Shown here piece after piece: positions 3,281 to 32,429 of a stretch of DNA of 39,386 nucleotides. Position 1 is the first letter of the stretch; every line of letters starts with the position of its first letter. Under the pieces are notes generated by a model. That model searched no databases. It saw nothing but the letters and a program-made list of their open reading frames with translations, and had not been told where the DNA came from. The stretch comes from Minisyncoccota bacterium (GTDB lineage Bacteria; Patescibacteriota; Minisyncoccia; JAHIHE01; JAGLIN01), in NCBI GenBank assembly GCA_023137595.1, contig JAGLOZ010000071.1, positions 1 through 39,386 of the forward strand, in the 5' to 3' direction. Both the position numbers and the translations under genes were made by a program.

Positions 3281-4585
3281 TTAATTATTGTTTGATTCTA
3301 GCTGACTTATTATAAAGTTTAATCTTCTAAGTAAATCATCATAAGTCAAAATATCAATAACATTTTTATATTTTCTTCTGATAACTTCAAAATCGCTCTT
3401 TTGATCTGGGCTAAGTCCATTATCTCTTCCCATAATGATTAAACCAGATGGATTGATAATTTTTATGCTAAACCCTTCTGGTAACTTTCTCTTATATCTC
3501 TTTATTAAACAGTCCTCTCCTTTTTTGCCCCATCTGTTTAAATAATATATATATTTTTCAATTTGCATAATTGTTTTCGACAAAGCTAGCGCTGGAGTGT
3601 AATTATTTCTATATTTTGTTGGTCTAACTATACTATCATTAGAAGGTTTTTTTATCTCTATTATATCAATATTTCCTCCAGCATCTACCAGTAAATAATC
3701 TAATCTTTTGCGTTTTTTGCAACCAGCTTCTACAAGAGCTTCATCGAAGACATTTATATATTTCGGATATAAAAGTAAAATTATCTTGTGCATTTCTTTT
3801 TGCCATTCCTTTTCATTAAAGTTAGCTTCATCTTTTAACATTCTTTTCAATTCTTCATAAATAGCCTTGTATTTTACTAATTCGCTTTTTTTGAACATCT
3901 TGTATATATTTTTTCCTTTTATACTAATTTTTTTGTTCATATAATCTTTGTATTTTTCTTCACTGTCCACTGTTGTATTAAAATAATTTATCAAAACTGT
4001 ACTAAGCCGAGCATCAACATACTTTTCAAGTTCACCTTCTTTTGGAAAGTCATCTAGCATTTTGTTAAATTCTTCTTTTGGAATATGGCTATCTTTTTCT
4101 CCTCCAATATAAATATCTTCATTGAGTAGTTTATCAATTTTTCTAAAAATTGACACTCCTCTTGATGCAATAAAAAATTTCCAAGTAATCTTAATATCTT
4201 TGTGAATAAATACATCTTTGCTTATGTCTAACTTATTTCTATTAATTTTATAATAATTGTCTTCTACTAGTTTGCCAAAAATGAATTCAGCTTGTCCGTC
4301 GTAATCTTTCTCTAAATTTTTATCTAAACTTTGTTCAAATAAATCTTTTCTTTTGAATACAAAAGTTTTCTTTATCGGTATTGCTTTTTGTTTTCTTAGT
4401 TTTTTAAAAATCCACTCAGGATTACCGACAGGTTCGTAAATAAGTATCAACAGATTATTTTCTACTCTAAATTCAATCATACTTTTTAAAATTATCTTTA
4501 AAATATTACTCTCACAAAAAAAGCCTTCCGCCAGCTGATAGCGCCTTTCGGAGCTATCACTATACTCTTTCGAGTATAGACTCAT
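3281..4585 (-). CDS. sduA: Shedu-type anti-phage nuclease (SduA-like, DUF4263)
   Basis: Shedu proteins are single-gene phage defence nucleases with a PD-(D/E)XK core, cutting DNA after assembly into oligomers. This 434-residue protein shows the fold near its C-terminus: E264 in WQKE, D296 in KRLDYLLV, and E310-x-K312 in DIIEIKKP. It is followed by the conserved end GLIIMGR (381-387), an IRRKY helix (402-406) and ILTYDDLLRRL (412-422), as in known SduA. The N-terminal 250 residues are a variable sensor-like region. A promoter lies 103-130 bp upstream. The start is uncertain: ATG 4585 sits inside an 11-bp inverted repeat and has no proper SD; the next in-frame ATG is codon 36. Downstream genes on the same strand are close (27 and 32 bp), so the nuclease may be co-transcribed with two envelope proteins. 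Confidence 0.85.
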   Translation of the reverse strand: MSLYSKEYSDSSERRYQLAEGFFCESNILKIILKSMIEFRVENNLLILIYEPVGNPEWIFKKLRKQKAIPIKKTFVFKRKDLFEQSLDKNLEKDYDGQAEFIFGKLVEDNYYKINRNKLDISKDVFIHKDIKITWKFFIASRGVSIFRKIDKLLNEDIYIGGEKDSHIPKEEFNKMLDDFPKEGELEKYVDARLSTVLINYFNTTVDSEEKYKDYMNKKISIKGKNIYKMFKKSELVKYKAIYEELKRMLKDEANFNEKEWQKEMHKIILLLYPKYINVFDEALVEAGCKKRKRLDYLLVDAGGNIDIIEIKKPSNDSIVRPTKYRNNYTPALALSKTIMQIEKYIYYLNRWGKKGEDCLIKRYKRKLPEGFSIKIINPSGLIIMGRDNGLSPDQKSDFEVIRRKYKNVIDILTYDDLLRRLNFIISQLESNNN

Positions 4586-4629
4586 CCTACAAAGTACTGG
4601 CTAGAAAGCCATTTCTATGTAGGATGAGA
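4542..4629. repeat. nested hairpins over the Shedu start codon
   Basis: CTCATCCTACA (4581-4591) and TGTAGGATGAG (4619-4629) form a perfect 11-bp inverted repeat, and the Shedu ATG (4585-4583) is within one arm. Inside its loop TAGAAA/TTTCTA can also pair. Within the first 20 codons two more hairpins occur: TATACTC/GAGTATA (4560-4577) and GATAGC/GCTATC. The translation initiation region of the mRNA would therefore be tightly folded. Confidence 0.65.
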
Positions 4630-4687
4630 TTTAAACCATACTCCATCCCAAACACTAGGGACAAAGGTTAGGTTACTAAATTGTTAC

Positions 4688-4908: not shown

Positions 4909-4958
4909 ATTGTTTAGATGAGTTTGACAAAATGCTCCAGCCAAAAGACTGGAGCCAA
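4909..4958. repeat. left 50-bp direct repeat flanking the zeta module; includes a terminator hairpin
   Basis: Matches 6038-6087 in the same orientation at 44 of 50 positions. Its core is a hairpin GCTCCAG/CTGGAGC preceded by GAGTTTGACAAAA. Read on the minus strand the stem is followed by ATTTTGTC, so it can end the transcript of the zeta kinase and the 55-aa ORF. Confidence 0.7.
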
Positions 4959-4986
4959 TAAAAAACCAAATTTCAAAATTCAAAAA

Positions 4987-5154
4987 TCAACCGCGTTTAA
5001 CTGTTTTTATTTTGCCGAATTTCTTGTCATATCTCTTTACCAAATCCAGCTGATCCTTATTTGCCTTAGCGGCAACTCCGCTTATTATATCTTGCTGTTC
5101 TTTAACCGGCAATTTAGAAAAACTATTCAAATCTAATTTTTTATTATTTTTCAT
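4987..5154 (-). CDS. 55-aa protein overlapping the zeta kinase stop; candidate partner
   Basis: Short gene starting ATG 5154 in an ATGA overlap with the kinase stop codon and ending TGA 4987. The product is 55 residues, Lys-rich and without a membrane segment. It begins MKNNKKLDLNSF; residues 13-47 look helical (LPVKEQQDIISGV, then DQLDLVKRYDKKFGK) and the end is basic. The 4-bp overlap means translational coupling with the kinase. Classical zeta antitoxins (epsilon, PezA) are upstream and larger, so a role as antitoxin is only a guess from position; a regulatory or unrelated small protein is equally possible. I do not recognise the family. Confidence 0.6.
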   Translation of the reverse strand: MKNNKKLDLNSFSKLPVKEQQDIISGVAAKANKDQLDLVKRYDKKFGKIKTVKRG

Positions 5155-5855
5155 TTTATATCTTTTAATATTTCATTTAACTTTCTTTCAGAATACTTTA
5201 TTTTTAGATAACTGTCAATGTGAACATCGAGGTAAGATTCTTTGATATTATTGCTATAATCCTTAATTATTAAATAAACTTTTATTTTATCTTTAAAAAT
5301 AGACTTAATTTTTTTGACATTATTTTTAGCGTTGAAAAATGATTCAATAAATACTTTTTTAGGCACCATTCTGCCTTCTAACTTTTCCCGTTTTTTTGTA
5401 AACTCCCAAGCAACTAACGGATCTTGATAAATATAATGTATTGCCACTTCCCTATTTTTATTAATTGATCTTTCAATATTGCGATAAACAATATTAAATT
5501 TTGCAAAAGTGCCGTCTAGCAATAAATTGTATTTATTTTTCAAAGTGTAACTGTAAAGCATATCAACAGCTATAGAAGCGGCACCTTGAACAACATCTGA
5601 ATTAGCGCCATTATATTGCGGTATTATTTCTCTAATTTCATCCGCGTCAATTCTTACTATGTTGCTGTCAAACCTTTCAATAAACCTTTTAGAATATTCC
5701 GTTTTCCCCGCTCCCGGCGAACCTGCCATAAATAATGAAATAGGGTTTTCGTTCGGTTTATAAATTTTGCTGCTAGCAAATTTTTCAAACAATAAATTTT
5801 TATTCTTTTTTATAAATTCTTTAGCATTCTCGCTGTCTTCTAATAATTTACTCAT
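5151..5855 (-). CDS. zeta-toxin family kinase
   Basis: P-loop kinase of the zeta/PezT group, which phosphorylates UDP-sugars such as UDP-GlcNAc and so blocks wall synthesis, or in other branches acts as a house-keeping nucleoside-type kinase. In 234 residues: Walker A AGSPGAGKT (44-52), RIDADEIREIIP (68-79) with the putative catalytic Asp, LLLDGTFA near 111-118, and the lid segment KREKLEGRMVPKKVF with Arg residues (about 154-168), all in zeta order. Start ATG 5855 is followed by a helical, charged N-terminus. No epsilon-like antitoxin gene lies upstream; instead a 55-aa ORF overlaps the stop codon. The module is enclosed by 50-bp direct repeats, which suggests transfer as a unit. Confidence 0.8.
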   Translation of the reverse strand: MSKLLEDSENAKEFIKKNKNLLFEKFASSKIYKPNENPISLFMAGSPGAGKTEYSKRFIERFDSNIVRIDADEIREIIPQYNGANSDVVQGAASIAVDMLYSYTLKNKYNLLLDGTFAKFNIVYRNIERSINKNREVAIHYIYQDPLVAWEFTKKREKLEGRMVPKKVFIESFFNAKNNVKKIKSIFKDKIKVYLIIKDYSNNIKESYLDVHIDSYLKIKYSERKLNEILKDIK

Positions 5856-6037
5856 TGTTTTATATTTATAATAACGCTTTTATAAATCCTACCTCCACCT
5901 TATCACTCCACACCCGATAAATCAAGGTTAAACAGAGAAAATTAAGACATTCTGTTATTTGCAATCTCACAGAAATATATGATTCAGATCAGGAGACGCT
6001 GAACCAACATAAGATTTCTGTGATTGTCGTAGACAAG

Positions 6038-6087
6038 ATTGTTTAGAGGAGTTTGACAAAAGGCTCCAGTTAGGAGACTGGAGCCAA
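6038..6087. repeat. right 50-bp direct repeat flanking the zeta module
   Basis: Same orientation as 4909-4958, 44 of 50 identical. Its hairpin is longer here: GGCTCCAGT / ACTGGAGCC with loop TAGGAG. Substitutions in the loop differ between copies while arms are kept, as expected for a structure under selection or repeated spread. Confidence 0.7.
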
Positions 6088-6205: not shown

Positions 6206-6259
6206 ATAGAAATATAGTGTATTTTGCAACGGCCGTTGCAAAATACACTATATTTCTAT
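6206..6259. repeat. perfect 54-bp palindrome with no loop
   Basis: Both halves of 27 bp match exactly and meet at GG|CC (6232/6233). The centre reads TTGCAACGGCCGTTGCAA and the outer part is AT-rich (TAGAAATATAGTGTATT). No T tail on either strand, so it is not a normal terminator. DNA of this type can extrude as a cruciform. Confidence 0.9.
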
Positions 6260-6911: not shown

Positions 6912-7121
6912 TGTCATTCTGAACTTGGTTCAGAATCTTTCAACTATTACACCAAACAAGTCCATAAAATCATTGAATCTTTCGCTTAGGACGAAAACTC
7001 AATTGCTGTCTTTAGTATAAATAAAAAGATGATTGCATTTGCGTCGTAGACGAAAGGCAATATTAAAATAGGATAAATTGAACCTAAAATATAATAGATT
7101 CTGAAACAAGTTAGAATGACA
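6912..7121. repeat. MITE-like element R1, copy A
   Basis: About 210 bp with terminal inverted repeats of 26-27 bp: left 6912-6938 starts TGTCATTCTGAACTTG, right 7096-7121 is its complement with one deletion and one substitution. Internal sequence (ATTGCATTTGCGTCGTAGACGAAAG-like, then AACCTAAAA) matches copy C at 32196-32396. No ORF inside. Confidence 0.8.
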
Positions 7122-29861: not shown

Positions 29862-30022
29862 TGTCATTCTTAAACTTGTTTCAGAATCTTTAAGCTGTTA
29901 AATTGAAACAAGTCTATAAATTACCAATATAGAGTTTATTGCGTTGAATATGACTAGATATAGCAGTTAAAAGATTCTGAACTAAGCTTGTCCTGAGCTT
30001 GTCGAATGGATTCAGGATGACA
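29862..30022. repeat. MITE-like element R1, copy B (degenerate)
   Basis: Left end TGTCATTCTTAAACTTGTTT (29862-29881) matches R1. The right end AGATTCTGAA (29972-29981) is interrupted by CTTGTCCTGAGCTTGTCGAA before TTCAGGATGACA (30011-30022). Another TGTCATGGTGAGTTTGTCGA fragment precedes at 29829. Suggests nested insertion of two repeat types. Confidence 0.65.
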
Positions 30023-32142: not shown

Positions 32143-32195
32143 ATTTTTAGGGCTTACGAGTATTTTCGGTTTATATATAATTCAACTCTATGAAT

Positions 32196-32396
32196 TGTCA
32201 TTCTGAACTTGTTTCAGAATCTATTTTCTCTTACGATTAGCCAGGCCCATAAATCACAAAACTTTTAAATGAAGTTGAAAACACAATAGCTGTCATAGAA
32301 AGATAATTGTATTTGCGTTGTAGATGAAAGTATAGTGTTAAATGGCGTAAATTTAACCTAAAACAACAAAGATTCTGAAACAAGTTCAGAATGACA
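32196..32396. repeat. MITE-like element R1, copy C (most intact)
   Basis: 201 bp with perfect 27-bp terminal inverted repeats (32196-32222 and 32370-32396; left begins TGTCATTCTGAACTTGTTTC). The inner part shares ATTGTATTTGCGTTGTAGAT and AACCTAAAAC with copy A. It contains no ORF. Confidence 0.9.
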
Positions 32397-32429
32397 GTTT
32401 AGTGAACTCAGAATAGCGCCGCTGCAAAT

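What the first reader, a model, noticed from the sequence alone, without database searches (positions are those of the whole stretch)
4909..6087. Zeta kinase plus an overlapping 55-codon ORF enclosed by 50-bp direct repeats
Direct repeats at 4909-4958 and 6038-6087 (44 of 50 identical, hairpin inside) bound a 1.1-kb segment holding just the kinase and a small ORF that overlaps its stop by ATGA. A downstream, coupled small protein is not the known epsilon-zeta or PezAT order. It could be a new antitoxin arrangement or a small regulator, and the unit may move by recombination between the repeats.
Basis: partly seen in the sequence, partly recalled or inferred. Interest (0 to 1): 0.7.

Follow-up and report, generated by a model that had tools for sequence, protein, structure and literature searches.

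The report
Zeta kinase with downstream antitoxin candidate
A toxin-like kinase gene is followed by a tiny gene of unnamed family that sits behind this kind of kinase in nearly every intact copy checked, in several bacterial phyla; the tiny protein is probably the kinase's antidote, and the DNA repeats around the pair are scattered genome-wide and probably unrelated to it.

Summary
In detail: a PF06414 zeta kinase (5151-5855, -), a 55-codon ORF starting in its ATGA stop overlap (4987-5154, -), and 44/50-identical repeats at 4909-4958 and 6038-6087. The small ORF is a real, unnamed protein family. It follows 73 of 76 zeta genes in 80 loci fetched from Patescibacteria, Pseudomonadota, Enterococcaceae and others (the three gaps are one contig end and two truncated kinases), 17 of 17 intact zeta genes in 384 genomes of the class, and 13 of 13 new ones in 380 genomes of the phylum. 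The ATGA overlap is the commonest junction, no gene is conserved upstream, and dN/dS of the small ORF is at most 0.36. Kinase-dead loci keep the small gene (10 broken, 3 small gene alone); one divergent plasmid kinase lacks it. A read-through AlphaFold2 model places the small helix on the kinase (pTM 0.86; ceiling about 0.78 without docking). Best reading: a toxin-first zeta toxin-antitoxin module with an undescribed antitoxin family; toxicity is untested. Toxin-first order itself is known (AvrRxo1-Arc1). The repeats are copies of a dispersed hairpin element (about 40 genome-wide), absent around the module in relatives; mobility through them is not supported.

The parts
5151..5855 (-). Zeta-type P-loop kinase (candidate toxin), 234 aa, first gene of the module
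   Evidence: Pfam PF06414 E 6.1e-41; Walker A GSPGAGKT, D72, D114, R156, R162 invariant and D70 in 71 of 72 relatives; a relative's model matches zeta 1gvn/3q8x and PezT 2p5t
4987..5154 (-). 55-aa small helical protein (candidate antitoxin), second gene
   Evidence: Homologues downstream of 73 of 76 zeta genes; dN/dS 0.02-0.36 in pairs with finite dS; one long helix, residues 17-46, pLDDT about 90-97; invariant Q35 in 73 of 73
5151..5154 (-). ATGA stop/start overlap, probable translational coupling
   Evidence: 32 of 73 relatives have the same -4 overlap; most others start within 13 nt of the stop
5856..5925 (-). 5' region conserved with zeta loci of two related genomes; probable leader or promoter
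   Evidence: blastn 77% identity extends to about 5925 in G004 and to about 5891 in G009
4909..4958 (.). Copy 1 of dispersed hairpin repeat, 28 nt past the small ORF's stop; terminator-like on the - strand (hairpin 4934-4955)
6038..6087 (.). Copy 2 of dispersed hairpin repeat, upstream of the kinase; terminator-like on the - strand (hairpin 6062-6085)

Best explanation
The kinase and the 55-aa protein form a two-gene toxin-antitoxin module in toxin-first order. The zeta-type kinase would phosphorylate a nucleotide sugar or a similar metabolite and arrest growth. The small, mostly helical protein, translated by coupling at the ATGA overlap, would bind the kinase and hold it inactive. Shown here: the pairing, its conservation and selection, the intact kinase motifs, the zeta fold, and the survival of the small gene at kinase-dead loci. 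Predicted: physical docking. Inferred: toxicity, neutralisation, substrate, and that the small protein blocks the active site. The flanking repeats are independent copies of a dispersed hairpin element.
For: 73 of 76 zeta genes in 80 loci have the small gene next; the other three are a contig end (L102) and two truncated kinases (L061, L104). In 384 genomes of the class all 17 intact zeta genes have a downstream small ORF (14 found by the family profiles divergent). In 380 genomes of the phylum 13 of 13 further ones do (10 by clear profile score, 3 divergent). No recurrent gene upstream. Kinase broken but small gene present: L098, L113, L128, G017, G002, G033, G113, an Enterococcus phage contig, G623 and G655; small gene without kinase: G000:C64, G009:C16 (last 38 codons of kinase only), G139. 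Purifying selection on the small ORF. Read-through model pTM 0.86 over 304 residues, above the 237/304 = 0.78 possible if only the kinase were placed. Precedent: Arc1, downstream of the zeta-fold AvrRxo1, is predicted to occlude its ATP site and stays intact beside pseudogenes (PMC4938570).
Against: No toxicity or neutralisation data. The loss asymmetry is not significant if loss scales with gene length (P about 0.10 for 11 cases; two more came later); it would be about 2^-11 if both genes were lost equally often. Some broken kinases may be assembly errors, and the zeta data sets overlap. A divergent P. aeruginosa plasmid zeta relative has no small gene. The model joins two genes through a stop codon, had only four paired rows, and gave no coordinates, so the interface is unseen. 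Residues equivalent to zeta's UDP-GlcNAc-binding R120 and T121 are not kept.
Confidence: 0.72

Rival explanations
1. The small protein is a positive partner, such as an activator, specificity subunit or chaperone, of a kinase with an ordinary or defence role.
For: Strict pairing and predicted docking suit any obligate subunit; UDP-GlcNAc-binding residues are not conserved, so a different substrate is possible; no DNA-binding domain is recognised in the small protein.
Against: An activator should decay once the kinase is gone, yet the small gene survives at 13 kinase-dead or kinase-free loci; zeta-superfamily kinases with characterised small partners are neutralised by them (PMC4938570, PMC5923241).
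Confidence: 0.18
2. The kinase and the small ORF are a mobile cassette whose ends are the 50-bp repeats.
For: The repeats bracket exactly these two genes, are 88% identical, and share flanking bases that other copies mostly lack.
Against: The repeat core occurs about 40 times genome-wide, alone, in pairs and inside ORFs. Related zeta loci have no copies; in the nearest relative, homology spans only the two genes. No empty site at VTT-gene relatives.
Confidence: 0.05
3. The second gene is a small regulator acting on nucleic acid, with no direct contact to the kinase.
For: Many lysines and arginines in the N-terminal part and long helix.
Against: The long conserved helix with an invariant Gln docks in the joint model; no match to any DNA-binding family.
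Confidence: 0.05

Closest known systems
epsilon-zeta (pSM19035) and PezAT
   Same: Kinase family, fold and catalytic residues; nearest solved structures 2p5t, 1gvn, 3q8x
   Different: There the antitoxin is upstream (established knowledge) and is epsilon or PezA; here the partner is downstream and unrelated in sequence, with no recurrent upstream gene
AvrRxo1-Arc1
   Same: Zeta-fold kinase first, small antitoxin immediately downstream, small gene intact beside kinase pseudogenes (PMC4938570); fold match 4z8u/4z8q
   Different: Kinase is 421 rather than 234 aa; Arc1 and its relatives are mostly 81-98 aa with a KExFD...YExxYY motif that the 55-aa protein lacks; no useful profile match to any PDB chain
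Gonococcal epsilon1-zeta1
   Same: Zeta-type kinase with a partner of non-epsilon fold; second-best profile match in the PDB
   Different: Permuted two-domain toxin with an OB domain (PMC5923241)
Rv0366c-Rv0367c (M. tuberculosis)
   Same: Non-canonical zeta/PezT toxin lacking UDP-GlcNAc-binding residues
   Different: Antitoxin is upstream and has a ribbon-helix-helix domain (PMC6362051)

Membership tests
Zeta_toxin (PF06414) kinases | Family profile match | tested here: met
   E 6.1e-41, 140.5 bits against a cut-off of 22.3
Zeta_toxin (PF06414) kinases | P-loop Lys/Thr, catalytic Asp, two conserved Arg | tested here: met
   K51, T52, R156, R162 in 72 of 72; D70 in 71 of 72. Pairing of these with zeta D67, R158 and R171 rests on the PezT alignment and recall
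Zeta_toxin (PF06414) kinases | Zeta/PezT fold | tested here: met
   Best Foldseek matches 3q8x, 1gvn, 2p5t, on the L068 relative
Zeta_toxin (PF06414) kinases | UDP-GlcNAc-binding residues of characterised zeta toxins (R120, T121) | tested here: not met
   Equivalent positions are mostly Ala/Ser and variable. Not required of all members: also absent in AvrRxo1 and Rv0366c (PMC4938570, PMC6362051)
epsilon-zeta / PezAT toxin-antitoxin | Antitoxin gene upstream of the toxin | tested here: not met
   No recurrent upstream gene in 72 loci
epsilon-zeta / PezAT toxin-antitoxin | Epsilon or PezA antitoxin | tested here: not met
   Small-protein profile matches no epsilon or PezA chain in the PDB; small proteins match no Pfam or NCBIfam family
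AvrRxo1-Arc1 | Small gene immediately downstream of a zeta-fold kinase | tested here: met
AvrRxo1-Arc1 | Arc1 homology, double-tyrosine motif | tested here: not met
   No profile match to Arc1 chains in the PDB; the 55-aa protein has a single Tyr
Type II toxin-antitoxin | Toxin arrests growth and the small protein neutralises it by binding | not testable with these tools
   Only predicted docking and loss asymmetry
Repeat-bounded mobile cassette | Repeats travel with the module, or an empty site with one repeat exists | tested here: not met
   No copies at related zeta loci; no empty site at VTT relatives

The most novel reading that the evidence does not exclude
The small protein founds a new antitoxin family, one long helix with an invariant Gln, that is the standard partner of a large zeta clade spread over Patescibacteria, Pseudomonadota, Enterococcaceae and others, whose members would be annotated as zeta toxins without an antitoxin.
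Probability: 0.62. Interest if true: 0.65.

Novelty: new variant of a known kind. Interest (0 to 1): 0.58.

Why it matters
Zeta toxins are common and many lack a recognised antitoxin. This gives one candidate partner for a whole clade, with homologues in culturable bacteria (Pseudomonas, Halomonas, Pseudoalteromonas, Enterococcus), so the hypothesis can be tested directly. It also suggests that toxin-first order arose in more than one zeta lineage, and supplies a profile for annotating a protein family that Pfam and NCBIfam (and, for the window protein, PHROGs and PADLOC) do not name in the copies searched.

Tried and rejected
Repeats as plain terminators of adjacent genes: only 8 of 23 copies lie within 150 nt past a same-strand stop, 6 of 23 in the convergent control, and 5 lie inside ORFs, so a dispersed hairpin element fits better, although both window copies look terminator-like. 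Repeats as cassette ends: rejected. LOOT RNA as part of the module: it follows the small gene in G004 and G009, but in 54 genomes it occurs beside many other genes, so it is not specific. Literature searches found no description of this pair; the library holds no preprints and few subscription papers.

Full report
Observation. All features are present at the stated coordinates. The kinase at 5151-5855(-) is 234 aa and matches Pfam Zeta_toxin at E 6e-41. The 55-aa ORF at 4987-5154(-) starts inside the kinase's stop as ATGA. The repeats are 44/50 identical and unique as a pair in the window, each with a stable hairpin.

The small ORF is a real gene. A search of relatives found it beside zeta genes in four genomes of the same family besides the window's own, twice with a broken or nearly absent kinase. 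A wider scan returned 80 zeta loci from Patescibacteria, Pseudomonadota, Enterococcaceae and other bins. In 76 the kinase frame passed the intactness check, and 73 of these carry a matching small ORF directly downstream; the other three are a contig end and two truncated kinases. The junction is -4 (ATGA) in 32 and mostly within 13 nt otherwise. dN/dS of the small ORF is 0.02-0.36 in pairs with a finite dS. The family has one invariant residue, Q35 in window numbering. Its members match no Pfam or NCBIfam family and no PDB chain at useful significance; the window protein also matches nothing in PHROGs or PADLOC.

Symmetric test. In 384 genomes of the class, searches with both profiles gave 17 intact zeta genes, all followed by a small ORF; in three (G101, two in G058) it is divergent. 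Four further zeta genes are broken (G002, G017, G033, G113) and keep the small gene; three small genes have no kinase (G000:C64, G009:C16, G139). In 380 genomes of the phylum, 13 new intact zeta genes all have a downstream small ORF, three of them divergent, and two broken ones (G623, G655) keep it; contig-end cases were set aside. These sets overlap with the 80 loci. An Enterococcus phage contig has a broken kinase and an intact small gene. One divergent P. aeruginosa plasmid relative has no small gene, and more distant Enterobacter plasmid zetas are followed by a protein of about 210 aa. The one-sided loss is what an antitoxin predicts, but with loss proportional to gene length the probability for 11 cases is about 0.10, so it is supporting rather than conclusive.

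No upstream partner. Among 72 loci, upstream same-strand ORFs are not shared except between close relatives. This differs from epsilon-zeta and PezAT.

Kinase. The P-loop, D72, D114, R156 and R162 are invariant and D70 is in 71 of 72. Nearest PDB sequences are PezT, gonococcal zeta1 and zeta. Positions equivalent to zeta's UDP-GlcNAc-binding R120 and T121 are not kept, by the PezT alignment, so the substrate is open.

Structure. The small protein alone is modelled as a short helix and one long helix (residues 17-46). A relative, L068, whose small gene lies in frame after the kinase stop, was read through as one chain: pTM 0.86 over 304 residues, a disordered linker at 240-256, and the helix region at pLDDT 82-87. 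If only the 237 kinase residues were placed, pTM could not exceed 0.78, so part of the small protein is placed with confidence relative to the kinase. Coordinates and PAE were not available, so the site is unknown. The model matches zeta, PezT and AvrRxo1.

Repeats. The core CAAAAGGCTCCA, with up to one mismatch, occurs 42 times in the genome against 1 for the reversed control. Copies stand alone, in pairs and inside ORFs. Related zeta loci have none, and homology to the nearest relative spans just the two genes. VTT-gene relatives show no empty site. The two window copies share extra bases, so local duplication is possible.

Known systems. AvrRxo1-Arc1 is a zeta-fold kinase with a downstream antitoxin predicted to occlude the ATP site; arc1 is intact next to pseudogenes (PMC4938570). 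The present pair therefore works like a known arrangement but has an unrelated partner and a different kinase clade. The tree shows one Pseudomonadota group (support 83/79) and one Enterococcaceae group among Patescibacteria lineages, but group labels rest on bin titles.

Verdict. A new variant of a known kind: a toxin-first zeta module with an undescribed candidate antitoxin, well supported by comparative evidence and untested by experiment.

Noticed in passing
window 3281-4585 (-): Shedu-type defence nuclease SduA (PADLOC E 5.5e-148) next to the module.
   Followed up: partly
window 4537-4674 (-); L203: LOOT RNA (RF03000) upstream of Shedu; in G001:C78 a LOOT RNA lies 57 nt before a near-identical Shedu gene. 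In other genomes LOOT precedes many different genes.
   Followed up: partly
window 6206-6259: Perfect 27-bp inverted repeat, 54 bp in all, a very stable hairpin between the VTT-domain gene and the kinase; similar sequence near a VTT relative in G001:C73.
   Followed up: partly
window 6912-6940, 29873-29927, 32193-32399: A second dispersed repeat, TGTCATTCTGAACTTG...TTTCAGAATCT, with inverted copies; the genome has four Y1 transposase matches over the cut-off.
   Followed up: no
L169 (G139): The orphan small gene lies near a MNT/HEPN-like gene pair and a gene of DUF3800 type beside a DUF3800-II RNA; these gene names are by eye, not by a family search.
   Followed up: no
L186, L187: More distant Enterobacter plasmid zeta genes are followed by a protein of about 210 aa of unknown function.
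   Followed up: no
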